A stretch of 64,000 nt of DNA from the NCBI GenBank assembly GCA_003550305.1, contig QKYT01000072.1, forward strand, positions 153,089 through 217,088, read 5' to 3'. This DNA comes from Glomus cerebriforme. Taxonomy: Eukaryota > Glomeromycota > Glomeromycetes > Glomerales > Glomeraceae. Shown in pieces: positions 29,001 to 46,130 of this stretch (positions are counted from its first letter, which is position 1; each line of letters starts with the position of its first letter). A program made the position numbers and the translations under genes. The notes under the pieces were generated by a model. The model saw nothing but the letters and a program-made list of their open reading frames with translations. It searched no databases and was not told the origin of the DNA.

Positions 29001-29683
29001 TACTACTTTAATAAAGTGAAAGTTTTTTAAAGTCTAAAGTTTTCCCGTTATAAATTTTTTTATAATTTCGTGATATAGACCACGTGTAACGTTTCACTAG
29101 TCATACTTATTTTATATAATAATAGTTTCAGTTTTAATTATTATTATATCTATTTTTTTTTTGGAATTGGAACTCCCCCCTTGTTACAGTAAGTGTTTGT
29201 AAATTACTCTATTCCATATTTAGATAACCAACGAGAATTCTAATTCAGTTAATTCCACGCCCTTTTCTTAATATAAATAAAAAATTTTTTATACATTAAT
29301 AATTTATTTTATTTATATTATCGTTACAAATTTGGTTAACTATTTAAATTTCGTGTATAAATACTGTTATAAATAATTGGTTATCACATAATATCAGTAC
29401 TTTGATAGTACCTTTTTTTTTTTTTTTTTTTATTGCATAAATTTAAATAATCCTTAAAAACTTCATAAACTCCCCAATTCTCCCTTTTTTTCTTCTCGAT
29501 TTTCTTTCATTCATCCTCTCTCTTTTCTTTCTTTTTAACTTTTCTTTCTTTCTTTTTTTTTTTTTTTTTTAAAAAAAAAAAACTTTTAATCCATTTGGAT
29601 TATTATATTTATTATATTTTATTGATAAATAAAATTATATATATATAGATATATTAGAAAAAAATAAAAGTCATTTCTGGAAA
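26022..29683. other. 3.7-kb intergenic region between Ran and NADPH oxidase
   Basis: This is A+T-rich DNA between divergent genes. Only a few patches have mixed composition: around 26420-26620 and 27470-27600. The latter has a 61-codon open frame without homology and a CCGATCGG palindrome. The sequence ATGCATATGCAT at about 26637 is a short palindrome. T-rich and CT-rich tracts (29400-29580) precede the oxidase start. I see no convincing gene, tRNA or transposon. Confidence 0.5.
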
Positions 29684-31345
29684 ATGGCCGAATCATCATT
29701 TTTTGAAAGAGAATTTGCACCAAAACGTTTGGCATTTTGGATATTTTGGTTTGGTAGTCATATAGGTTTATTCATATATGGTTATCTTAAACAATTATTG
29801 GATCCTGAACTTGATCAACTTACAGCAATTGGTATCTCTGTGACAGTCTCTCGAGGTGCTGGTTTATGTTTAGGTTATGATGGTGCTTTAATTCTTTTAC
29901 CTGTTTGCAGAAATATAATTAGATATTTACGTCTTACTTTCTTAAACAAATTGATTCCTTTTGATGAAAATATTTGGTTCCATCGTCAATGTGCTTATTC
30001 TATATTATTTTGGACTTTGGTTCATACTTTTGCTCATTATATTAATTTTATTAGAGCTGAACAATTACACCTTGCTCCCGCTTGGGTTATTCATTATGAA
30101 AAACCTGCTGGTATAACGGGTCATGTTATGTTACTTATAATGGTTTTAATGTATACTTCTGCTCATCGTTCTATAAGACAACAATCTTTTGAAACTTTTT
30201 GGTATACTCATCATTTAGCTTTCTTTTTCATGTTATGTCTTTATACTCATGCGGTTGGTTGTTTCGTAAAAACCGATCCTAAACTTGGTCCACCCCATTG
30301 TAAAGGTTATTTCACTTGGCATTTCACAATTTGGGGTGGAATTATATATTTCTTTGAAAGAGTTTTAAGAGAATTTAGATCTCGTCAATCAACTCAAATT
30401 ACGAAAGTTATTAATCATCCTTCAAAAGCTGTTGAAATTCAATTCGCAAAACCATCTTTTAATTATAAAGCTGGACAATATTTATTTTTAAATGTACCAA
30501 AACTTTCTAAACTTCAATGGCATCCTTTTACTATTACTTCAGCTCCTGATGATCCTTATGTTTCTGTACATATTCGTCAAGTTGGTGATTTTACAAATGA
30601 ATTAGCTGAATTACTTGGTTGTAATAATTCTAGTGAAAAAGGTTATATTCCAAAAGATTTACCTAAACTTCGTATAGATGGTCCTTTTGGTGCTCCAGCT
30701 GAAGATGTTTTTAATAATGAAATTGCAATTTTGGTTGGTTGTGGTATTGGTGTAACTCCATTTGCTTCTATCTTGAAAAATATTTGGTATGTCAATTTTT
30801 TTTTGTTTTTGTTTTTTGTTTTTTGTTTTTAAATTAAATAAATTAATACTGATATTATATATATAAACATTTCCGACTTTAGGTATCAACATCAAAATCA
30901 AAGACCATCAAAATTACGTCGTGTAGAATTCTTCTGGATTTGTCGTGACACTGGATCATTTGAATGGTTTCAATCATTATTAAAAACATTAGAAGCAACA
31001 CAATTAGAAGAAGGATTCTTAAAATTCCATATTTATCTTACATCAAAATTACGGGAATCAACTATACAAAATATTGTTATAAATGATGTATCAAGTTCAT
31101 ATGATCCATTGACAGATTTGGAATCACGTACTCATTATGGTAGACCAAACTTTGGTGATGTATTCTTAAAATTAAAGAGAGCAATTGAAAGTGGTAGATA
31201 TTTACCTGAAACTGAAAGAAATTTATCAACAAATGTCGGTGTATATTATTGTGGTCCTTCTGCTCTAGCAAAAAGTCTTAAAGTTGAAGTTAAAAAAGCA
31301 AATTCTGAAGGAATAAAATTCAGTTTCCATAAAGAGCATTTTTAA
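29684..31345 (+). CDS. NOX: NADPH oxidase (NOX, EF-hand-free, NoxA-like)
   Basis: Two exons, 29684-30786 and 30883-31345, give 521 residues without frame breaks. The N-terminal half is a six-helix ferric-reductase-like membrane domain. Heme-ligand pairs are visible as FHRQCAYSILFWTLVH (His about 100 and 114) and THHLAFFFMLCLYTH. Then come the FAD-binding HPFTITSAP and the NADPH-binding stretches [24 protein letters not shown] and YYCGPS. The C-terminus is KEHF, close to the F-terminus usual in the family. There are no EF-hands. Such enzymes move electrons from NADPH across the membrane to make superoxide; in fungi they need NoxR/p67-like and Rac partners, not found here (family knowledge). 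A decayed copy lies 2 kb downstream. Confidence 0.94.
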
Positions 31346-33360: not shown

Positions 33361-34798
33361 GTCGAATCAATTTTTGAAAGAGAATTATCTCCAAAACGTT
33401 TGATATTCTGGATATTTTGGATTGGTAGTCATCATATAGGTTTATTCATATATGGTTATCTTAAAGAGATGTTGATTACTAATTGGACTTTCGGTATTAA
33501 TTTCTCGTGGTGCTGGTTTATGTTTAGCTTATGATGGTGCTTTAATTCTTTTACCTGTTTGTAGAAATATAATTAGTTAATTTCTTAAACAAAATGATTC
33601 CTTTTGATGAAAATATTTGGTTTCATCGTCAATGTGCTTTATTCTATATTATTTTGGACTTTGGTTCATACTTTTGCTCATTATATTAATTTTACAAGAG
33701 CTGAACAATTAAACTTTGCTCCCGCTCGGGTTATTCATTATGAAAAACCTGCTGGTATAACGGGTCATATTATGTTACTTATAATGGTTTTAATGTATAC
33801 TTCTGCTCATTCGTTCTATCTCATCATTTAGCTTTTTTTCTTCATGTTATGTCTTTATATTCATGCAATTGGTTGTTTCGTAAAAACAAATCCTAAACTT
33901 GGTCCATCCTATTGTAAAGGTTATTTCTCTTGGCATTTCACAATTTGGGTGGAATTATATTCTGTACATACATATTCGTTCAAGTTGGTGATTTTACAAA
34001 TGAATTAGCTGAATTACTTGGTTGTAATAATTCTAATAAAAAAGATTATATACCAAAAGATTTACCTAAACTTCATATTTTGGTACTCCAGCTGAAGATG
34101 TTTTTAATAATGGAATTGCAATTTTGGTTGGTTATGGTATTGGTGTAACTCCATTTGCTTCTATCTTGAAAAATATTTAGTATGTCAATTTTTTTGTTTT
34201 TGTTTTGTTTTTATTTTTATTTTTATTTTTATTTTTTTTTGTTTTGTTTTGGTTTTGGTTTTGGTTTTGATTTGATTTTTAAATTAAATAAATTAATACT
34301 GATATACAGTATATACGGTACATTCCCGGCTTTAGGCAAAATCAAAGATCATCAAAATTACGACGTGTAGAATTCTTTTGGATATGTCGTGAAACTGGAT
34401 CATTTGAATGGTTTCAACCATTATTAAAAACATTAAAACAAACACAATTAGAAGAAGGATTCTTAAAATTTCATATTTATCTTACACCAAAATTACGTGA
34501 ATCAACTATACAAAATATTGTTATGAATGATGTATCAAATTCATATGATCCATTAACAGATTTAAAAATCCTCGTACTCATTATGGTAGACCAAATTTTG
34601 GTGATATTTTTTTAAGATTAAAAAAAGTTATCTGTTATTGAAAATGGTAAATATTTACTTGGTATAGAAAAAAATTTTTTAACTAATATAAGAGTTTATT
34701 ATTGTGATCCTTCCGCTTTAACAAAGAATCTTAGAGTTGAATGTAATAAGACTAATACTGAAAAGATAAAATTCATTTTTCAAAAAGAACATTTTTAG
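33361..34798 (+). pseudogene. Decayed tandem copy of the NADPH oxidase gene
   Basis: The copy can be aligned to the 29684 gene from the second codon to the stop. The start ATG is lost (AATAGTCGAATCA against AAATGGCCGAATCA). There is a short deletion near 33470, a stop plus a lost segment near 33575, a frameshift near 33640, loss of the segment around the histidine region at about 33810, and a deletion of roughly 210 bp at about 33957 that removes the FAD-binding segment. Further lesions hit the 3' exon (34326, 34565, 34630). The intron is kept and has expanded with TTTTA and TTTTGG runs. Intron retention means DNA-level duplication, not retroposition. It is not expected to encode an oxidase. 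Confidence 0.92.
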
Positions 34799-35469: not shown

Positions 35470-36930
35470 TGTATCAATTATGGATTTCATTGATTAATAT
35501 AGTATTAGTTCTTTAAGATTAAATTATTACATGGATTTTTAACCCATTTTGCCATTATTTTTAAAATTTAATACACAGCAGGAATTATAAATCAAATAAT
35601 CAATCTACTCTTTTTTAAAACAATTGTGTAAAGCTTTTCAGTTCTTAACATTAAGGATGCAGACTATAGCAGTAATATGAATTTAGTAAAGCATCTTTCA
35701 GCTATGCATTCTAATGCAACTGAAAACAATTAGGGATCAGTAAATTAGATTGATAACGTAAGTTTAGAGATATTTATATTTTGCAACAATTATAGCAAAT
35801 TCCCAGTTTATAGAAAATTAGATATCTGAAATGCATTAATTTCAAAATTCTTATTCCAATGATAGTAATTTCAGATTAATTTTACTTTTATTTAGCCTAA
35901 ACTTAGTTTTAGAGAAATTCTGTATAAATAGAATACAAATGTAGGGATATTAAAAGTCACAAAATTTTCTTTATACATTTCACAATAAATCTTCAATAAG
36001 CACTTTAGAAGTTTAAATAAATAATACTACAGATGGAAATTTTCTAATTTAAAGCATTTTTATTAATAAACAACCTGCAAAATCAAAATATTTCAATTGT
36101 ATTCAGCTATAAAAATCTTCTAGATCTTAATCCATATAGTTTTTGTGAAATAAAAATTCTTGCTTTTGATTTCAAATATTTGTTATATTGTTATATAATT
36201 ATATTTTTCACAGAATATATCTTGAAAAGCATATTTGTGCAAGCAGAATAAAGTATTCTTTATGTTTTTTATATTCTATAATAATCATTAAACTATCTAG
36301 AGAAGAATTGGCATTTATTTTTAAAAAATGTTACATAGTATAAAAAAAAATAATCTGAAAAAAGTAATAACATTTTGAAGAAAAAAACTGAGAAGTAAAT
36401 TATAATTTCACTAAAACTTTTGAAAAATGATTCTCATGTTAAATAAAAAAATTAATCAAACCAAATAATTAAGATTTAAAAGTAAAAAGTCTAATTGTAT
36501 TTGCAGATAATACTTCTATTGATAATAATAATAAAAAAATATCAGAAATATCAAATTATATTATTGCTATCTATATATAAGATAATTTGAAAAATTAAAT
36601 TCAATGCAAATAATAAGAATAATGATAATATCAGTATACAAAAAAATAAATTTCAATTGAAAAGAGACAATTTCTTTTAAAGATTATTCATAAACAAAAA
36701 AATTTTTATAATTTATTATAAAAGTTATCTATATCTGTTAAGACTCAAAAGAAAATAAACTAAAAAATACTAATAATATTAAGAAAAATAATGATAAATC
36801 TGTATCATAAAGTTTAGCCTAATTATATTAAAAAGCAATTAATACAAAATTATGTATTACAAAAATAAATTAAGATGAAATTTTATATTAATATAAATAT
36901 GCTAAAGAATTCAAAAATAAAATTAAGTCT
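34799..36930. other. A+T-rich region without recognised gene
   Basis: No coding region was recognised. A 63-base T run is at 35405-35467. The rest is A+T-rich with many stop codons in all frames. Confidence 0.5.
35405..35467. repeat. 63-bp poly-T tract
   Basis: An uninterrupted run of T, by far the longest homopolymer in the window. It could be the poly-A tail of a minus-strand retrotransposed copy, but the sequence to its right has no recognised similarity. Its exact length is unreliable in draft assemblies. Confidence 0.7.
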
Positions 36931-36934
36931 GTTC

Positions 36935-37288
36935 TTTATGGGCAGGACAGGACTTCTCAGATTAGGTACATAAGGGATTGTATCATATAATTTGGTAACA
37001 GAGGTCTCACTCCCAATCCTGCTTCACCGGTAAGTCAAAGGTAACTTAGTCAAGTTTTTTCGCTCCTCTCCAAGACTACAGGCATTTTGATCTAAGGAAG
37101 AATTGTTTTCATTCTTCACCTGTAATAGAGTAAACATGATACCCTCTTCTCAGTTGTGATGACATGAACAAATAATTGTAACATGCAATAGTGTTTATTC
37201 TTAATTTTGATTGTGTATTCTTGAATAGTAATCAATAAAGTTTATTTGTGAGAAAGGTTTAAAAAAAAAAAATAAAATAAAATAAAAT
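36935..37288 (+). repeat. Dispersed SINE-like repeat, copy A, A-rich tail
   Basis: The segment beginning ATGGGCAGGACAGGACTTCT and containing CGCTCCTCTCCAAGACTACA can be aligned over about 200 bp to copy B at 56325-56560, where the matching pieces are AGGGCAAGGCAAGACTTTTC and TGCTCCTCTCCAAGACTGCG. Copy A ends in an A-rich (AAAATA)n tail near 37260-37288, as retrotransposed elements do. No open frame and no clear tRNA-type A and B boxes were found, so the class is uncertain. Confidence 0.55.
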
Positions 37289-37632
37289 TAAGAATATTAA
37301 ATCTTAAGATTTATTAGTTATTAATCTAATAGCTAAAAGTTAAACATATTATAAAATTATTTAATATCTTTTAGATATTATAGAAATAAATTAGTGTAAA
37401 AAAAATTGAATATATACAAAATATTTATAAGAATAAGAATAAACAAAATCAAGTAGATAAAATTATTTAATATTATTTTAAACCTGATACTAATATTTTT
37501 TTTTTAATTTTATAAGGAACGGCCTTGGGGACTTTAAGTAAGTAAGGCCATTTCTACAAAATAAAAAATGGTTCACTATTCCTAAAAAAAAGAAAAAATA
37601 TAAAATGGAAACAACGCATTTAAAAAAAACCA

Positions 37633-37678
37633 ATCAAATTTTATTTAATCATGTAATATAAGGGGATGCGTTACAACG
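37633..37678 (+). repeat. Direct repeat left of the plus-strand mini-exon array
   Basis: The segment CCAATCAAATTTTATTTAAT...GATGCGTTACAAC recurs at 38984-39030 as CCAATCAAATTTGATTAAAT...AATGCGTTACAAT. The two copies bracket the array in the same orientation. They could be promoter-type elements or the ends of a larger repeated unit. Confidence 0.55.
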
Positions 37679-37681
37679 TCT

Positions 37682-38400
37682 CAGCTTGAAGGTAAATTAG
37701 GAGAAGATTTTCATTTTTTTTGGTTTTTTTTATCTTTGGAACGTTACTAACACTCCTTTTACTTTTTTTCTTTAGAAAGCATCTTTCTGAACTGGATTTT
37801 GACTTGGACTATAAAAGGTAAGTTGGAAGTAGAGATTGTTTAGTTTATTTTTTTGTTTTTTTTTTGTCATTAAAACGTTACTAACATTTCTTTTGCTTTG
37901 TTTTTAGAGAACATTTTTCTGGAACTGAATTTCAACTTAAAGGTAAGTTAGAAGGAGGGGATTTGTTTTTTTTTTTATCTTTGAAATATTACTAACATTT
38001 CTTTTACTTCTTTTCTTTAAGGAATGCCTTCCTGAATCTGGATTTGGTTTAAATAAGTTGGGAATGGAGATTTTGGGTTTTTTTTGGATTTTTTTTTGTC
38101 TTTGAAATATTATTAACGTTTCTTTTTGTATTTTTTTTTAGAAGAATGCCTTCCTGGACTTGGATTTTGATTTGGATTATAAAAGTAAGTTGGGAGGTTG
38201 TGTTTTTTAGGTTTTCTTTTCTTTATTTTTGGAACATCATTAATGCTCCTTTTTGCATTTTTTCTTTAGAGAAAGCCTTTCTGGACCTGAACTTTAGCTT
38301 AGACTATAAAAGGTAAGTTAGGAGGTGGTGTTTATTTTTTTTTCTGTCTTTGGAATGTTATTAACATTCCTTTTGCATTTTTCTTTAGGTGATGGATAAT
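37682..38400 (+). repeat. Tandem mini-exon/intron array, plus strand
   Basis: Five imperfect units of about 115-130 bp follow one another. Each has a mini-exon (37776-37817, 37908-37942, 38022-38053, 38142-38184, 38270-38312) bounded by an acceptor such as TTTCTTTAG and a donor such as GTAAGTTGG. Each intron holds a branch-point-like TACTAAC or TATTAAC inside a palindrome, e.g. GGAATGTTATTAACATTCC at 38352-38370. The exons translate in one frame as variants of KNAFLDLDFDLDYK. One donor is mutated to ATAAGT (38053). The unit resembles no family I can name. Repeated short exons are known in SP7-type effectors of this fungal group, but the peptide here is different; that link is inference only. 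Confidence 0.6.
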
Positions 38401-40700
38401 CAGATTGATCAGATATCCATTGAACCATTCGGTCAATCCAGTGATACAAACAGATCAATCTAAATCTGGTCATTTTTTGGATAGATGACTGGATATAGCA
38501 TACCTCTAGAGAACAACAGTCTTAGGGATTTAGGTGAGTTGGGGGTTTTTAAAATGGAGTTTAAGAAACATAAGTATAACCCACTAACATTTCTTTTTTT
38601 CTTTAATTTTGTAAGAAATTTAAAAATCTTATCTTGAAAGATAATTATAGATGGGGAGTGTTTTTAATTTATTTTTTTTGTAAATACTGCTTTAATCTCA
38701 TGATGTTGCTTAATTTGCTGCTATAATGGTACTTTAATTTTATGATAGTATTTAATTTCATGATATTGCTTAATTCTNTAATGGTANTTTAATTCTAGTT
38801 NTCTTTACTTTTATTATNATNAACTTTTATTTTTATTCCTNTTTTTATCTCTGTCCTTTATTTTATATATAATAAAACTTGTATAATTTGTTATTAAAGT
38901 GATAAATAAAATAAATAAAAAATTGGCCAATAAAATTATTTGTAAATTATAATAAAGGATAAAAATTTGTAATAATATATTTGGCCAATCAAATTTGATT
39001 AAATCACGTGATTTAGGAATGCGTTACAATGCGAGGACATATAAATTTTAAACCCTTTAGATCATTTTAATTTTACCTTACATATATTTTGAAATTCTGA
39101 AATCATCATTAATAAGTCACAAACACAAAGTATACAAAATAGATGATAAGTATAATATAAATAAAATATAAAGAATTGTGATTTGTGATAAATAAAAAAA
39201 ATTTATTTTATAAAATATTCAATAAATAATAAAGAAAAACTATTATTTATCAAAATCTTTATTTTTTACATATAAAAATAAGAAAAATATTGGGTTTAAT
39301 CATATAATTTTGTAAATATTATTCATATTATTATATGGTTACTATATTTTATTATTGCAAAAATGTACTATTAGTTTTGCAGATTGCTTTTGATAATATT
39401 ATATTAATTATTATATTATATCTCATTAATTATACATAATCATAATTAATTAAATATAAATAAAAATTAATAAAAAGAAAAAAAATTGGTAGTTAAGTAA
39501 AGATTTTTAAATTCTTTAAATATTATGAAAAAAAATAAAATATTAATATTTATTTATTATATCTTTTATTCTAAAATTTAATTTATTTTATTAAATTATT
39601 TCTAGTTTAAAAAAAAAAATATAAAGTTTAATTAATTCATAAAATGAATTAAAAAGATTAAGGCCAGAAGATTCTTAGATTATTAAAATGATATTATACC
39701 TTTTATTGAGTTATCTACTAGTAAATATAAAAGTACAAAATTATAATATATATTTGAGAGTTTTGGAATAAATCCTTTTTTATACTATATATTCTTTAGA
39801 ATTTTAAAAACTATACTAATTTTTTTACTATATTAAAAAAGTTTTTATTTAAATTCTTAATTTTTATATTATTTTTTTGGATATATAAATCTCTTAGGAC
39901 TTTAAAAACTATACTGATTTTTTTATTATATTAAAAATACTTTTAAGAGTTTCAGATTTTTAATTTCTATAACTACTTTTTTATTATATAGTATTTAATA
40001 AATCTAATGAAATAAATATATCAAAAATTATTTTTACATGACTTAGTTTATTAAATAACATATTTTTCATAAATTTAATAAAAATTCATAAAATAGGACT
40101 AATTATCCTAATTTCTATCATAAATTTAATGAAAAATATATATAGCAAAAACTATTTTAGGATAGATTAGCTTATTAAATTACATATTCTATCATATAAG
40201 TCTAATAAAAATTGTTCTAATTCCTTCTAAAATATATTATTCTATAAGTTAAATCTAATAAAAATTAATATATTAAAAACTGGTCTACTTCCTATTAAGA
40301 TTGCTTATCTAAATTCTTTTAAAATCCTATACCTAATTTTACCAAATTTTACTATAGTTTTATTATAATTTCACAACGTTTTGTTAGTTTTGCCATTTAT
40401 AATAAGTTTTAATAGATTTCATCTTTTATCAAATTTTACTAACTTTTAATAAAATTTTAATATAATTTCATCAAATTATTACATTTCATTATTTTGCCTA
40501 TTTACTAAATCTTTTAATTTTACCAAATAATCTTAAGCATCATCAATAATGCATTGGCATAAAATGATATTAATTCCTATAAAATAAAAAGTAAATTCTA
40601 ATAAGAATTTAACTTATACAGTATATATATTTTATTATACTAAAACTAATTTTATTATACAGTCAGATCTCTATATAATCATAAAATTAGTTTTAACTCC
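38401..40700. other. A+T-rich region with diffuse repeats
   Basis: From 38401 to about 38630 the sequence continues the array's style (another CCACTAACATTTC plus T-tract at 38580-38617) without clear mini-exons. Isolated N bases occur at 38777-38841. From 39780 to 40330 there are weak direct repeats of about 100-120 bp (TTTTAAAAACTATACT at about 39802 and 39902; AATCTAATRAA motifs later). No gene was seen. Confidence 0.5.
38984..39030 (+). repeat. Direct repeat right of the plus-strand mini-exon array
   Basis: Second copy of the roughly 47-bp segment described at 37633-37678. It contains an AATCACGTGATT palindrome that is degraded in the left copy. Confidence 0.55.
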
Positions 40701-40728
40701 TTCAATATTGATGATAGAAAGATGAATT

Positions 40729-40960
40729 TTATACCATTCAAATCCTCTTATAGAGATGAATTAATTGATATAATATTTATTAAAATCTAATTATTGGATC
40801 ATGTTTTGTTTTCAAAAATTTTTAAATATTTGTATAGTTGTATCTCTCATCAGGAAGTTTTGAACAGGCGTATAAAGTGTAAACATATGCCATGTATTGC
40901 TCAACACCAAAAAAGTGTTGCATAATAAACCCTTTGTCAACCAACGTGATTAAAAATGTA
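40729..40960 (+). repeat. Left inverted end around the minus-strand array
   Basis: The parts ATACCATTCAAATCCTCTTA and CATCAGGAAGTTTTG, followed by CAACACCAAAAAAGTGTTG, recur in reverse order and on the opposite strand at 44780-44935. The match is good in these blocks and poor between them. The pair encloses about 4 kb including the minus-strand mini-exon array. Confidence 0.5.
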
Positions 40961-41285
40961 TTGCACAACACTTTTTTAGATGTATAATAACATACAGTAA
41001 AATAACAGCAGTTTAAAAATGCGTATAACAACACTAGATTAGTTGAAAAACGCGTATAATTAGTTAAAAAATGCATATAAAAATGTTGAAAAACGCATAT
41101 AACAATACAAATTTTAGCATATATTAACTACATTTAATAAATAAAAGCATTGTTAAACTTGTCAAATTGATTTTATTATGTTTAAATTATATTCGTTTAT
41201 TAAAAATGTATTAAATTACAAATTCTTTCTAGATATACTAACTATGCTATACTAACTAACTATTCAATTCTAATATCCAAACTAG

Positions 41286-43093
41286 CTAAGCTGCGAAACT
41301 TACGTTTCTAACTTCCAAAAACCCAAATTTCAAGGAACAAACTGAATCTACAAAAAAAAAAGAAAAACATTCGGTTAGAACATTTCTAATAAAGAAAAAA
41401 AATGAAAAAATGAAATTTTGTAACGAAATATTCGTTACAAAATTTACGTTTTGGTTTCCCAAATCCAGAAGCAAACCTACAAAAAAAGAAACATTCAGTT
41501 AGAACGTTTCTATACAAAGAAAAAAAAATGAAAAACGAAGTTTGTAACAAAATGAACGTTACGAAACTTACGTTTCCGTTTACGTTTTCAGAGCCGAATT
41601 TACAAAAAGAAAAGAAACGTTCAGTTAGAACGTTTCTATACAAAGAAAGAAAAAACAAAAAAATGAAGTTCATAACAAAATAATTCGTTACGAAACTTAC
41701 GTTTCTTTTCTAATTCTGAATTCCCAGAGCCGAATCTACAAAAGAAAAGAAGAAACGTTCAGTTAGAACATTTCTTAAAGAAAAAAACCAAAAAAAAATG
41801 AAGTTTTGTAATGAAATGAATGTTACAAAACTTATGTTTTCAATCCCAATTCACAGAAGTAAACCTACAAAAAAAGAAGAAACGTTCAGTTAGAACGTTT
41901 CTTAAAAAAAAAAATGAAGTTTCGTTATGAAACTTACATTCCGAAAAGAAAGTTTCGAAGTTTTAACTTCGAAATTTACTAGATTTCCAAGCCGAAATCG
42001 AAAAAAAACCCAATCCTACAAAAAAAAAATGAAAAAAAAAGAAACATTAGTACCATTTCTACTAACGATTCTTTAAGTAAATGCATCAGATAGGAATTTC
42101 GCGAAGAAACTTCCATACCTGAAANGAAATCCAAGAACCTANAAGAAGAAAAAAGAAGAAACGTTAGAAACGTTTCTATTTAAAAAAAAACAAAAAAAAA
42201 AGAATGGTAAGTTTCGTTACGAAACTTACCATTTCCTAATTCCAAGTGCTGAACCGAAGAAGAGTCTACAAGAAAAGAAAAAGAACTGTTAGAAAACGTT
42301 TCTAAAAAAAAGAAAAAAAAATGGTAAGTTTCATGAAGAAACTTACCGTTCTTCAATTTCACGTACTAATCTGAAAGCTAAGAGAACCTACAAGAGAAAG
42401 AAATGTTAGAAACGTTTCTAATAAAAGAAACCCAAAAAAACACGGTAAGTTTCCCAAAGAAACTTGAGAAACTTACCATTTCTGATTCCAGTATCGAACC
42501 GAAAGCATAGAGAAGCTACAAGAAAAGAAAAGAAAAAACGTTAGAAACGTTTTTTTAAAAAAATGAAAAAAATGATAAGTTTTACGAAGAAACTTACCAT
42601 TTTCCCTTTCTAGTCCAGACCGAAGAGCTTGGAGAACCTACAATAATAAAAAAAGAAACGTTAATAAGCATTTCTAAAAAAACAAAAAAAAATAGTAAGT
42701 TTCGTGAAGAAACTTACCATTTCCGATTTCAGTATCAAACCGAATGCACAGAGAACCTACAAGAAAAGAAAAGAAGAAACGTTAGAAACGTTTCTTTAAA
42801 AAAAAAATGAAAAAAATAATAAGTTTCGCGAAGAAACTTACCGTTTTCCCTCCCATTCCAAACCGAAGAGCTTGAAGAACCTACAAGAAAAAAAAGAAAC
42901 GTTAATAAGCATTTCTAAAAAAAAAACAAAAAAAAAACCCCATAAGTTTCACGAAGAAACTTACCGGCTTCCACTTTCCAGTATCGGACCAAGAGACCTA
43001 CAAAAGAAAAAAAGAAGAAATGTTAGAAACGTTTCTTTAAAAAAAAATGAAAAAAATAGTAAGTTTTATGAAGAAACTTACTGTTTCTCAATT
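41286..43093 (-). repeat. Tandem mini-exon/intron array with splice-site hairpins, minus strand
   Basis: About 15 units of 115-130 bp. Read on the minus strand each unit has an acceptor (TTTTCTTGTAG or similar), a mini-exon of 36-40 nt, then a donor GTAAGTTTC. The donor is followed within a few bases by its own complement (GAAACTTACC), so the donor lies in a hairpin, for example GGTAAGTTTC/GAAACTTACC at about 42209-42233. The branch-point-like TTCTAAC sits in a second palindrome (AGAAACGTTTCT). Several mini-exons are 39 nt and differ mainly by substitutions, e.g. at 42488-42514, 42724-42760 and 42845-42881. The right half is the better conserved; the left half (41290-42000) is diverged. The encoded peptide is not one I recognise. 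Confidence 0.6.
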
Positions 43094-43156
43094 TTCAGAA
43101 CCAAGTTCAAATGGTGATTAAAACTGATTTAAGGTTTTTAAATTTTTATTTAAACT

Positions 43157-43281
43157 AATAAACTGCGGCTGCGGCTTAATTGATAAGTGCGGCGCGCAGT
43201 TATTTTTTTTAAAATAAACTGCGGCTGCGGCTTAATTGATAAGTGCGGCGCGCAGTTATTATTTTTAAAATAAACTGCAGC
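43157..43281. repeat. 56-bp G+C-rich tandem repeat, two copies plus a partial
   Basis: AATAAACTGCGGCTGCGGCT starts the copies at 43157 and 43213, and a truncated copy starts at 43269. Each unit has inverted arms AACTGCG and CGCAGTT and so can form a hairpin. The units are far more G+C-rich than the surroundings and lie just upstream (in the minus-strand sense) of the mini-exon array. Confidence 0.8.
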
Positions 43282-43380
43282 TCATATCATGTGATACACG
43301 TGATAAAAAAAAGTATATAATGAGCCTTTTTTCATTTTTTTTTTCTTTTTCAACTTGAATTTTTTTTTAATTAATCTTGC

Positions 43381-43490
43381 GAAAAGCCCCTCCTCTATGG
43401 ATGGGTAGAGGTCATTAGTATCTACAGGGGAAGAGCCATTACTGCTTTCTCCGCCCATTCATAGTGACAAAAAAAGGATGTATCAGTAGT
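43381..43490. other. Potentially structured G+C-rich segment
   Basis: CCCCT (43387-43391) can pair with AGGGG (43426-43430). CCTCT (43392-43396) can pair with AGAGG (43407-43411). An alternative pairing joins CTATGGATGGG (43395-43405) with CCCATTCATAG (about 43454-43464). This may be a structured RNA or simply the end of a repeat. No known RNA family was recognised. Confidence 0.3.
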
Positions 43491-43638
43491 AAAATATTTT
43501 TAAAAAAAAAAAATTTTCAAAACTAATCAGACGCTTTTGGCCTGAATTATTTTCGAATTTGGCCAGAATTATGTTTAATGTTGGCCAATATAATAATCTG
43601 GACCCCGATTTTAAAGATTTTTAATAAATTTAATAAAA

Positions 43639-44553
43639 GGGAAAATTTATTTCTCACCCCAGGGTGAGATTAATATTACTCACCCCCTGATCACGTTTCC
43701 ATTTTTGGCATCACCCTTAAACAATGTTTATTTGTTTATCATTCTAATAATAAACTTTTCAAATCTTTTTCTCCTTTCTTTCTTTTCTTTCTTTTTGTTT
43801 TAAAAATTTATTTTAGAAGTTTTCATTAATTAATAAAGCTAAATATTTTTTCAATAGTGGTTTAGAACTTGTGTAAAATTTTATCATAAAGTTATATTTT
43901 ATAATTTCAACAAACGCGCTTTTCATATTGTATAGAGATTTCACAACACAATTTTGTTATTTTAGTTAAACTAAATAGATGAAAAATACTTAAAATAATT
44001 GTTCAGCAGGTATGGAAATAATTGCATATTAATTTTCATAAGGCTAGCTCAAGTGGTTGTGGAGTTATGAATTTTTTTGTAAAAATACTTAAACGCATTT
44101 TGTTTTTTTACTTTCAAGTGTAATTTCAACACTTTGGCCAAAGAAAACAGCTAAGGAAGCTTAAGTAAAGTTATTCAGCAGGTATGGAAATAATTGCATA
44201 TTAATTTTCATGAGGCTAGCTCAAGTGGTTATGGAGTTATGAATTTTTTTGTAAAAATACTTTTAAAAACGCGTTTTATTTTTTTTACTTTCAAGCGTAA
44301 TTTGAATACTTTGGCCAAAGAAAATAAGTAAAGGAAGCTTAAGTAAAGTTGTTCAGCAGGCATGGAAATAATTGCATATTAATTTTCATGAGGNTAGTTC
44401 AAGTGGTTATGGANTTATGAATTTTTTTGTAATAATATTAAAGATGCGTTTTTGGAAAAAATTTAAAATACAATCAACATTATATATCATTATATGATCA
44501 CGTGACGGGATGAGGAATATTGATCTCACCTGGGGTGAGGAATAAATTTTCTC
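43639..44553. mobile_element. 915-bp TIR element with 9-bp target duplication
   Basis: The terminal inverted repeats of about 60 bp are near-perfect: GGGAAAATTTATTTCTCACC at the left, and the complement GAGAAAATTTATTCCTCACC at the right. TTAATAAAA flanks both ends (43630-43638 and 44554-44562), giving a 9-bp target-site duplication. Long TIRs with a 9-bp duplication fit Mutator-like elements (established knowledge). No transposase is encoded, so it is non-autonomous. The interior holds a tandem repeat of about 172-178 bp. Confidence 0.88.
44002..44440. repeat. ~175-bp tandem repeat inside the TIR element
   Basis: Copies begin with TTCAGCAGGTATGGAAATAA at 44002, 44174 and 44352; the third is truncated at about 44440. 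Spacings are 172 and 178 bp. Two N bases (44394, 44414) fall in the third copy, suggesting collapsed or ambiguous reads. Confidence 0.9.
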
Positions 44554-44779
44554 TTAATAAAATTTTAATAAAAAAATTATTTTTTAATATATTTGTAAAT
44601 TTAAAATAAATAAAATTTTAATTATATAATAACTATTTATATTATATTAAAAAAATATTAAGTGGTATTGATATATGGGTGTTGTGCAACAGTATATAAT
44701 GTGTTTAACAACTGTTGGTATAGAAAAATATGTATATTAACTGCATGTATTGATAAACTCCAGTATACAGGTGTTTTAC

Positions 44780-44935
44780 GACATGTTGAACAACTGGTAG
44801 TGTTAATCAACACGTTTTTTGGTGTATATCAACACCTCCAAAACTTCCTGATGCTATCAATATTAATATTAGAAAGATGATATTTATACCATTCAATTCA
44901 TCTCAATAAGAGGATTCGAATGGTATAAATTTTAA
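44780..44935 (-). repeat. Right inverted end around the minus-strand array
   Basis: On the minus strand this reads in the same order as 40729-40960: ATACCATTCGAATCCTCTTA, CATCAGGAAGTTTTGGAGG and CACCAAAAAACGTGTTG. It also contains its own hairpin (ATTTATACCATTC ... GAATGGTATAAAT, about 44889-44932), a motif found again at 58179-58220. Confidence 0.5.
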
Positions 44936-46130
44936 CAAAATCTAATTACTAGATNTCGAGTAATTTGCAATTTTGTATTTTATATAAATCACATGATTGG
45001 TATTACTGTGCAATTCAAAATTCTGCAATATTGCAAATTTGGTGCAGTATTATCTTATCTTTAGCAGATTTTTTCATATTATCTTTAGCAATTTAAAGTT
45101 TTTTTTTAATATTGACTTAGCAAATTTTTTCTCATTTAAATTTCAAAAATAAATATTTTACTATATATAATTATTAGTTTTAAAATTCTGTATATATTCC
45201 ATATTTATTATTACATATAATTATTATAGTTTTTATGAATTCCGTATACATCAGATTTTTAATAAAATCACAAAACATGAAATTTGTATAAAATATACAG
45301 AATTATGATACAAAAATTGTAAAAATATATACAAAACATATCATTTCTATTTATTTCTTATAGGGATAATAATAATATATTTCTTTCTTCAGAATTGGAT
45401 TATTTTGATTATGATAGATATACTATTTATTCTACTGATAATAATTTAGCAAAATGGCCTTTAGTATCACTATTTATTTCTAATTTAGAATTACTAATCT
45501 TTTTAGATAAAAACAATATATTTACTAATAAATAATCTATAGTTTATTATATATATAGAAATTTTAAAATTCAATAATAAAAGAGTTCAAATTATTTTAC
45601 AATAATTATATATATATACAAAGTAAAATAAGTGAAAAAATAATAATAAAATAATTGGTATAAATTTTATATATACAAAAAACTGGATCAACATTTTTAT
45701 AAAATTTTCAATCTGATTATTAAATTGGATTAAAACTGGTTTACTTGATATAGTAATGGTTATATAGAAGGTAAATAGCAGGTAGATCTGAAAATAAATT
45801 CAAATTTTTAAGAAGCAATTNAAATAATTTGTTTAATTACTTTAATAAAATAAATAAATAAATAACATATAACTTTATAAAGTTTTTTAAAAATTAAAAA
45901 AATAAGCAGTTCTTGCTAATATCTATCTAGATTCTTTTATTCTAAATTCTAATTATAATTTCAAATTTCAAAAATCTACCTTTATGAGTTTATGACATTA
46001 TTNTTTAACTGTTAATTCTTTATTAAAATATTAAAATAAAATTCAAATATTAACAGTAATCAGTTAAAAAATAAGAATCACTTTTATTTGATAAAGTAAT
46101 GGACCAATGAAAATTAATTAACAGGATGAA
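44936..46130. other. A+T-rich region without recognised gene
   Basis: No coding region was recognised. There are short (AT)n tracts and single N bases near 44956, 45821 and 46003. Confidence 0.5.

What the first reader, a model, noticed from the sequence alone, without database searches (positions are those of the whole stretch)
41286..43093. Array of about 15 mini-exons whose 5' splice sites each sit in a hairpin
On the minus strand, each 115-130 bp unit has an acceptor, a mini-exon of about 39 nt, a donor GTAAGTTTC and, a few bases on, the exact complement GAAACTTAC. The donor would be base-paired in the transcript. The branch-point-like TTCTAAC lies in a second palindrome (AGAAACGTTTCT). 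The repeat conserves splice signals and their masking structures more than the exon text. That suggests selection on splicing, perhaps for combinatorial exon inclusion or skipping. I know of no described system with this layout.
Basis: partly seen in the sequence, partly recalled or inferred. Interest (0 to 1): 0.82.

Follow-up and report, generated by a model that had tools for sequence, protein, structure and literature searches.

The report
Transposon carrying tandem mini-introns
In the genome of a root-symbiotic fungus, a mobile DNA element carries more than a dozen head-to-tail copies of a tiny exon plus a tiny intron with folded splice signals; it looks like a repeatedly spliced non-coding gene inside a transposon, and two further repeat families in the same genome are built in a similar way.

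Summary
The array is real: the minus strand of 43105-41286 holds 15 donor-like sites and 13 readable mini-exons of 28-44 nt. The donor hairpin pairs 8-9 of 9 bases at 8 of 15 donors and 7 of 9 at five. It is the body of a dispersed non-autonomous TIR transposon, window 40848-44853, with 15-bp TIRs and a 2-bp target duplication in 7 of 7 copies tested. One relative (C635) shares the terminal 190 bp and has a Plavaka transposase domain 2.2 kb inside. Exons keep no reading frame. Across unit types, splice signals and the donor's complementary arm resist transversions; exons do not. Present copies look neutral, without clear covariation. Two more dispersed families share the design and a branch-point palindrome; one lies in a TIR element with an 8-bp duplication. 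The genome is Glomus cerebriforme; a public protein threads exactly through one copy with 13 introns. Best reading: a transposon-borne, multiply spliced non-coding transcription unit. Splicing is inferred, not shown; combinatorial exon choice is unsupported.

The parts
40848..44853 (-). complete copy of the non-autonomous TIR transposon that contains the array
   Evidence: exact TIR at both ends, TSD; homology to the 20 fetched loci L016-L035: all 20 in the upstream half of the array, 16-18 in the downstream half, 10-16 in the 5' part and 9-12 in the 3' part
44839..44853 (-). 5' TIR CATCAGGAAGTTTTG
40848..40862 (-). 3' TIR CAAAACTTCCTGATG
44854..44855 (.). 2-bp target-site duplication CT (its partner is 40846-40847)
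43640..44490 (.). sequence private to this copy among those compared: nested insertion with a 178-bp tandem unit (43999-44442)
   Evidence: almost no homology in the 20 loci; TRF; boundaries approximate
43426..43458 (-). putative first exon (ATG at 43458; a second ATG at 43439, in another frame, corresponds to the start of protein P0004); donor GTAGAT
   Evidence: first exon found by threading P0004 through the C928 copy; window sequence
43082..43123 (-). 42-nt exon before the array, donor 43081 in a hairpin
42965..42997 (-). mini-exon, 33 nt
42842..42880 (-). mini-exon, 39 nt
42718..42756 (-). mini-exon, 39 nt
42598..42637 (-). mini-exon, 40 nt
42477..42515 (-). mini-exon, 39 nt
42347..42387 (-). 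mini-exon, 41 nt
42230..42265 (-). mini-exon, 36 nt
41980..42015 (-). mini-exon, 36 nt; a second donor-like site follows at 41937
41836..41864 (-). B-type mini-exon, 29 nt (donor decayed to ATAAG)
41701..41735 (-). B-type mini-exon, 35 nt
41572..41599 (-). B-type mini-exon, 28 nt (acceptor decayed to TAA)
41448..41476 (-). B-type mini-exon, 29 nt
41304..41347 (-). last mini-exon of the array, 44 nt; its donor has no good hairpin in this copy (6 of 9)
37660..38430 (+). array of a second, different dispersed mini-exon family (F2) in the same window, outside this element
   Evidence: sequence; 76 matches in the genome with 40 of 106 candidates scored

Best explanation
A non-autonomous CACTA/Plavaka-type DNA transposon carries, between its TIRs, one transcription unit read on the minus strand: a short first exon, a 42-nt exon, then a tandem array of 13-15 mini-exons (28-44 nt) separated by introns of mostly 80-100 nt, then a 3' region. 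SHOWN: transposon ends, target duplications, dispersion, array anatomy, absence of a reading frame, stem conservation across unit types, relation of one end to a Plavaka-bearing locus. INFERRED: that the unit is (or was, in the active progenitor) transcribed and that the spliceosome removes the array's introns, giving a short non-coding RNA of joined mini-exons; most introns have the 5' splice site in a hairpin stem and the branch site at or in the loop of a second hairpin; the array grew by tandem duplication of one exon-intron module. SPECULATIVE: being cleanly spliced benefits the element, for instance by better expression or export or by escape from RNA-based silencing; the donor hairpin would tune splicing speed.
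For: Element. Transposase-bearing relative: C635 shares the terminal 190 bp at 89-90% with a Plavaka domain 2.2 kb inside (E 2.3e-25, E 1.2e-17 for one ORF). Arrays of at least 3 same-strand units in 19 of 20 loci L016-L035 (L031 has 2), and in the 4 complete copies whose interior is readable (window; L039, half N, L041 and L042). Intron grammar: median intron 92 nt, branch A 26 nt before the intron end. Region-specific conservation. Donor unpaired probability 0.10 (37 donors) against 0.39 with the intron body shuffled. Two other families, F2 and F3, with the same order of signals. A public protein, P0004, threads exactly (150 of 150 residues) through the C928 copy with 13 GT-AG introns, 8 of which start at GTAAG array donors.
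Against: No RNA was available. The threading of P0004 is my script's; the record's own exon coordinates and any RNA support were not seen. It also needs cryptic donors (gtccag, gtacgt, gtatgg, gtaacg) and keeps part of an intron, as a gene caller saving an open frame would. Present copies lose donors (ATAAG) and acceptors (TAA) freely, and variable stem pairs show no clear covariation, so the copies read look neutral. A stem over the 5' splice site would be expected to hinder U1. The branch hairpin (at least 7 of 8 pairs) is found at 19 of 37 F1 sites, 29 of 37 when a second loop geometry is allowed, and at 4 of 8 F2 sites. No benefit to the element was tested.
Confidence: 0.6

Rival explanations
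1. Dead weight: the progenitor transposon captured one small intron-containing fragment, which expanded by unequal exchange into a minisatellite. The splice grammar is inherited and does nothing for the element.
For: Neutral-looking decay of present copies and near-independent change at stem pairs; no frame; variable unit numbers between copies.
Against: Unit types diverged in exon text, length and hairpin loop while donor arm, complementary arm, branch palindrome and pyrimidine tract stayed nearly free of transversions. Two further families with unrelated exons have the same order of signals, and their branch palindromes differ in the outer arms yet stay complementary (read from copies, not a formal test).
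Confidence: 0.25
2. DNA-level palindromic repeat: the array is a set of binding sites (for transposase, a dimeric regulator or recombination proteins) and the splice-like strings are incidental.
For: Short palindromes with 3-bp spacers resemble dimer sites (recalled, no call); the palindrome arms are among the best conserved parts.
Against: In the three families the spacer gives CTAAC or TTAAC, followed by a pyrimidine tract plus TAG, a mini-exon and a GTAA donor (F1 measured, F2 and F3 by reading). A symmetric binding site does not need this asymmetric order.
Confidence: 0.1
3. A coding mini-exon gene family (effector-like), as the public proteins C1645_* suggest.
For: Seven annotated hypothetical proteins match the exons; putative ATG first exon.
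Against: 165 exons: lengths 0, 1, 2 mod 3 = 55, 62, 48; 1-nt length differences between similar exon types; stops in all three frames of the joined exons in 4 of 4 copies, with a parser that missed or shortened some exons; P0004 needs cryptic donors; no Pfam family above its cut-off for P0001 and P0004.
Confidence: 0.04

Closest known systems
Plavaka transposons (CACTA/CMC/EnSpm superfamily), reported in R. irregularis in PMC11075540 (passages seen)
   Same: TIR, 2-bp target duplication, same terminal 190 bp as a locus with a Plavaka domain
   Different: no transposase in the copies read; a tandem exon-intron array instead. The word intron does not occur in the main text of that paper
Introners / introner-like elements (PMC9860276, passages seen)
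   Same: mobile DNA that carries spliceosomal splice sites; some families have TIRs and TSDs
   Different: an introner as described there makes one intron at its insertion site; here many introns lie inside the element, hundreds of bases from its ends
Symmetrical sister introns and stwintrons of Hypoxylaceae (PMC8469720, passages seen)
   Same: small fungal introns whose own sequence is an inverted repeat able to form a hairpin
   Different: those are single introns at novel gene positions with 45-55 nt arms and no flanking duplications; here two short hairpins per intron, in tandem, inside TIR transposons
Introns arising from tandem arrays or tandem duplication (search listing only)
   Same: tandem duplication of a segment containing splice signals
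   Different: those cases concern introns in host genes; here the array is non-coding and mobile
SP7-like effector genes of Glomeromycotina (PMC11333574, passages seen)
   Same: same fungal group, tandem repeats, intron
   Different: the paper reports one conserved intron before the first repeat and protein repeats; here one intron per repeat and no frame
Micro-exon genes of schistosomes (recalled) and aphid bicycle genes (named, otherwise recalled)
   Same: many tiny exons
   Different: those encode proteins; here exon lengths ignore the frame

Membership tests
Non-autonomous CACTA/Plavaka-type TIR transposon | terminal inverted repeats at both ends | tested here: met
   15-bp exact TIR at both ends of 7 copies 3-4 kb long; 77 exact genome matches, 0 in reversed control
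Non-autonomous CACTA/Plavaka-type TIR transposon | short (2-3 bp) target-site duplication | tested here: met
   2 bp in 7 of 7: TA, TT (3 bp possible), TT, TA, CA, AA, CT; an eighth TIR pair, C167, 10.3 kb apart, was not tested
Non-autonomous CACTA/Plavaka-type TIR transposon | ends shared with a transposase-bearing element | tested here: met
   one locus, C635; one end only; two pieces read, the stretch between and the other end not seen
Non-autonomous CACTA/Plavaka-type TIR transposon | TIR beginning CACTA or a Plavaka-typical motif | not tested
   TIR begins CATCAGG; no reference Plavaka TIR was compared
Introner | the inserted element is removed as one intron, with splice sites at or near its ends | tested here: not met
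   array splice sites are internal; the 15-bp TIRs hold no donor/acceptor pair; insertion into genes not surveyed
Coding micro-exon gene family | exon lengths that keep a reading frame | tested here: not met
   165 exons, 55/62/48
SP7-like effectors | in-frame repeats and a single conserved intron before the first repeat | tested here: not met
   one intron per unit, no open frame through the array; signal peptide not tested
Plain satellite DNA | no mobile context, no region-specific constraint | tested here: not met
   array inside a TIR element; region-specific transversion rates
Spliceosomal introns | removal shown in RNA | not testable with these tools
hAT element (for family F3) | 8-bp target duplication and TIRs | tested here: met
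   one copy, L016:550-2210; no transposase was sought, so the superfamily is by duplication length only

The most novel reading that the evidence does not exclude
Splice-array transposons: in Rhizophagus, non-autonomous DNA transposons of at least two kinds (CACTA/Plavaka-type with 2-bp and a hAT-like element with 8-bp target duplications) have independently acquired, or exchanged, cassettes of tandem non-coding mini-exons whose introns carry a branch-point hairpin around AACGTT-N-CTAACGTT, in one family also a hairpin over most donors. The cassette was kept in the active lineages because being spliced many times helps the element, for example to avoid RNA-based silencing. Its hairpins would make a natural test array for RNA-structure control of 5' splice-site and branch-site use.
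Probability: 0.3. Interest if true: 0.85.

Novelty: new variant of a known kind. Interest (0 to 1): 0.66.

Why it matters
If the introns are spliced, these are mobile non-coding genes made almost wholly of splicing signals. That would give a new angle on how transposons meet the spliceosome and RNA silencing, and a natural series of more than a dozen similar introns per copy, differing in hairpin strength, in which the effect of structure at the 5' splice site and branch site could be read directly. It also indicates that some annotated hypothetical proteins of G. cerebriforme come from transposon arrays, and that repeat masking and gene calling in arbuscular mycorrhizal fungi should look for such modules.

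Tried and rejected
Rfam: no family reached its gathering score in 36000-46000; two sub-threshold matches (E 0.023 and 0.52) are taken as chance. Coding reading: rejected on exon-length, stop and cryptic-donor evidence. C167 (TIRs 10.3 kb apart) was tried as an autonomous copy; its 6-kb extra stretch holds ORFs that look like a Helitron/Pif1 helicase from memory (no domain search), so it was read as a nested insertion. Extra sequence inside L033 gave no gene that I recognised. L031 is a short partial copy next to ORFs that resemble a Crinkler-type protein from memory. Of 34 Plavaka and 27 PF02992 matches compared by eye with the 77 TIR places, one each lies within 4 kb on the inner side: C635 (followed) and C837 (not followed). 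An inverted-repeat search did not settle the ends of family F2. Covariation in stems across copies: at the variable donor pair T-A 9 seen, 9.0 expected; at two variable branch-stem pairs 28 seen against 26.6 and 25 against 19.9 (my arithmetic on the margins), so at most a slight excess at one pair. Two of the three ORFs from C635 gave no Pfam match. Literature: searches listed no paper that I recognised as describing tandem exon-intron arrays in a transposon; one search returned 0 papers. They cover only open-licence PMC papers. Passages of PMC3886924 and PMC8786786 had nothing on it. Morin et al. 2019, on the G. cerebriforme genome, was seen only as a citation.

Full report
OBSERVATION. On the minus strand of 43105-41286 there are 15 donor-like sites (GTAAGTTT, GTAAATTT or ATAAGTTT), mostly 102-144 bp apart. 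Between acceptor and donor 13 mini-exons can be read: 33, 39, 39, 40, 39, 41 and 36 nt in the upstream half (A-type), then 36, 29, 35, 28, 29 and 44 nt (mostly B-type). A 42-nt exon precedes them and one unit near 42138 is degenerate. Counting G-U, 8 of 15 donors pair with a downstream arm at 8-9 of 9 bases, five at 7 of 9 and two at 6; the exact complement follows only four. TRF sees 120-129 bp units and a 241-bp higher-order unit. In the 112.5-Mb genome the pattern GTAAGTTTC-N4-14-GAAACTTAC occurs 149 times and its reversed control never.

WHERE IT LIES. I fetched 20 regions around hits of that pattern, taken from the listing and so not a random sample. A profile of seven window units finds arrays of at least three same-strand units in 19 of 20; L031 has two. 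In the copies with both types, A-type units come first and B-type units follow (whose output was cut). Homology runs beyond the array and stops sharply: all 20 loci cover the upstream half of the array, 10-16 the 5' part and 9-12 the 3' part. The ends are CATCAGGAAGTTTTG ... CAAAACTTCCTGATG. The genome has 77 exact matches to this TIR (36 forward, 41 reverse; 0 in control), and the two in this window give 40848-44853. Seven copies have exact TIRs 3-4 kb apart; all seven have a 2-bp target duplication. An eighth pair, C167, is 10.3 kb apart and was not tested for it. Three of the seven (L038, L040, L043) are 82-97% N inside and could not be checked for the array; L039 (48% N), L041, L042 and the window have it. 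The window copy is longer (4,006 against 3,034-3,461 bp), which fits a private insertion at about 43640-44490. A search with the 3' end gave 42 matches, with 40 of 127 candidates scored.

WHICH TRANSPOSON. The Plavaka family matches at 34 places. One, C635:88817-89368, lies 2.2 kb inside an exact TIR at C635:86615. The first 190 bases there are 89-90% identical to array elements L041 and L042, and one ORF of a piece read inside matches PF18759 at E 1.2e-17; two other ORFs from this locus match no Pfam family. Only two pieces of that locus were read and its other end was not seen. PMC11075540 (passages) places Plavaka in the CACTA/CMC/EnSpm superfamily, reports it prevalent in several R. [quoted passage not shown] A non-autonomous CACTA/Plavaka-type element is therefore well supported but rests on one relative.

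ORGANISM AND PUBLIC ANNOTATION. A search with spliced-exon peptides (a typed, joined query) hit seven hypothetical proteins at E <= 0.01 among 199 candidates, all named Glomus cerebriforme; only proteins of 0.55-1.75 times the query length were candidates. One of them, P0004 (C1645_817873, 150 aa), threads through the C928 copy with all 150 residues matched, 14 exons and 13 GT-AG introns. The genome is thus G. cerebriforme (R. cerebriforme by recall). Eight of the 13 introns start at a GTAAG array donor; four use other donors (gtccag, gtacgt, gtatgg, gtaacg) and one exon keeps part of an intron, which suggests a gene caller saving an open frame. The record's own exon coordinates and any RNA support were not seen.

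NOT CODING. Of 165 exons found by a strict pattern, 55, 62 and 48 have lengths 0, 1 and 2 mod 3. Similar exon types differ by single nucleotides (39, 40, 41 nt). All three frames of the joined exons contain stops in L041, L042, L039 and the window, although that parser missed or shortened some exons.

SPLICING GRAMMAR. In F1 the median intron is 92 nt (quartiles 84-98, n=125) and the branch A lies 26 nt before the intron end (24-27, n=114). In 166 A-type unit hits (140 of them near full length) the transversion rate is 10.2% in exons, 0.7% in the donor arm, 8.7% in the hairpin loop, 0.3% in the complementary arm, 9.1% in the T-rich spacer (where alignment is loose), 2.5% in the branch palindrome and 0.7% in the pyrimidine tract. 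The complementary arm is not itself a splice signal, yet it is as constant as the donor. B-type units (131 hits) keep a hairpin in altered form, roughly AAGTTTCGTAACG facing CGTTACGAAACTT with the GT end poorly paired. Predicted donor accessibility is 0.10 (37 donors) against 0.39 when the intron body is shuffled; four introns of ordinary window genes give 0.16-0.63.

AGAINST SELECTION NOW. The copies differ mainly by transitions. At the variable donor pair, C-G, C-A, T-G and T-A are seen 90, 45, 18 and 9 times, so T-A equals the product of its margins (9.0). At two variable branch-stem pairs the double change is seen 28 times against 26.6 expected and 25 against 19.9 (counts, arithmetic mine). 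Donors decayed to ATAAG and acceptors to TAA are common. Constraint, if any, acted on the progenitor line more than on the copies read here.

OTHER FAMILIES WITH THE SAME DESIGN. F2: window 37660-38430, plus strand, mini-exons of about 30-43 nt, donors mostly GTAAGTTRG without the donor hairpin; 76 matches, 40 of 106 candidates scored; one further copy read (L045). F3: found through the pattern AACGTTNCTAACGTT, which occurs 154 times against 6 for the reversed control; 179 matches, 40 of 168 candidates scored. In L016 a script finds ten F3 exons, all 29 nt, inside a 1,661-bp TIR element (L016:550-2210) with an 8-bp target duplication ATTAAATC (one copy tested); its TIR has 55 exact matches and 0 in control. 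An 8-bp duplication suggests a hAT-type element (recalled, not tested with a transposase). The branch palindromes, read as ancestral forms from CpG-decayed copies, are AGAAACGTT-TCT-AACGTTTCT (F1), GGAACGTT-ACT-AACGTTCC (F2) and AAGAACGTT-GCT-AACGTTCTT (F3): the core is shared, the outer arms differ between families but stay complementary, and the spacer gives CTAAC, or TTAAC in variants; F3 units in L016 also have ACT spacers. By script, arms with at least 7 of 8 pairs occur at 29 of 37 (F1, two geometries; 19 with the common one), 4 of 8 (F2) and 11 of 11 (F3) acceptor sites with a branch motif, against 0 of 3 in ordinary gene regions and 1 of 10 in other parts of the window. F2-like peptides hit a predicted protein of R. 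clarus (E 3.2e-4) and, weakly, of G. cerebriforme (0.037) and R. irregularis (0.041).

HOW IT MOST LIKELY WORKS. The transposon is a mobile transcription unit. A first exon and a 42-nt exon lead into the array, which grew by duplication of an exon-intron module; a transcript of the correct strand would be spliced at up to about 15 places into a short non-coding RNA. That is inference from anatomy. What the element gains is unknown; escape from RNA silencing or better expression are possible but untested. Combinatorial exon choice has no support, since there is no message to combine.

COMPARISON. The element meets the tests for a CACTA/Plavaka-type non-autonomous transposon that I could make; a TIR motif comparison was not made. 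It is not an introner: its ends are not splice sites. It is not an SP7-type or micro-exon coding family: there is no frame. Symmetrical sister introns (PMC8469720, passages) share hairpin-forming introns but are single, in genes, and without flanking duplications. I found no description of tandem exon-intron arrays inside TIR transposons in the searches named in Tried and rejected.

VERDICT. Real, and odder than a satellite: a transposon-borne array of mini-introns, with two similar designs in the same genome. That it is a transposon is near certain; that it is spliced is likely but unshown; what it is for is open.

Noticed in passing
window 37660-38620 (+): A second mini-exon array of a different dispersed family (F2) a few kb from the element; a sequence resembling the F3 element's 3' TIR (GCATACCTCTA at 38498) is embedded in it.
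   Followed up: partly
L016:550-2210: Third family (F3): ten 29-nt exons in a 1,661-bp TIR element with 8-bp target duplication; TIR TAGAGGTATGCTCTG has 55 exact matches in the genome.
   Followed up: partly
L020:1100-6980: Two copies of the array transposon appear to lie head to tail (homology coverage).
   Followed up: no
L044:398-6440: A stretch with Helitron/Pif1-helicase-like ORFs appears nested inside an array element (recognised from memory).
   Followed up: no
window 43999-44442: 178-bp tandem unit inside the nested insertion; contains a tRNA-like A-box string (recalled), perhaps a SINE.
   Followed up: no
window 29633-31345 and 33598-34615 (+): NADPH-oxidase-like gene and a broken, truncated second copy of it downstream (recognised from memory).
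   Followed up: no
L031:1227-3499 (-): ORFs resembling a Crinkler-type protein next to a short array remnant (recognised from memory).
   Followed up: no
G000 C67, C151, C195, C325, C490: AACGTT[AG]CTAACGTT hits lie within about 230-360 bases of an exact F3-type TIR on these contigs, so F3-like elements may come in several subfamilies.
   Followed up: no
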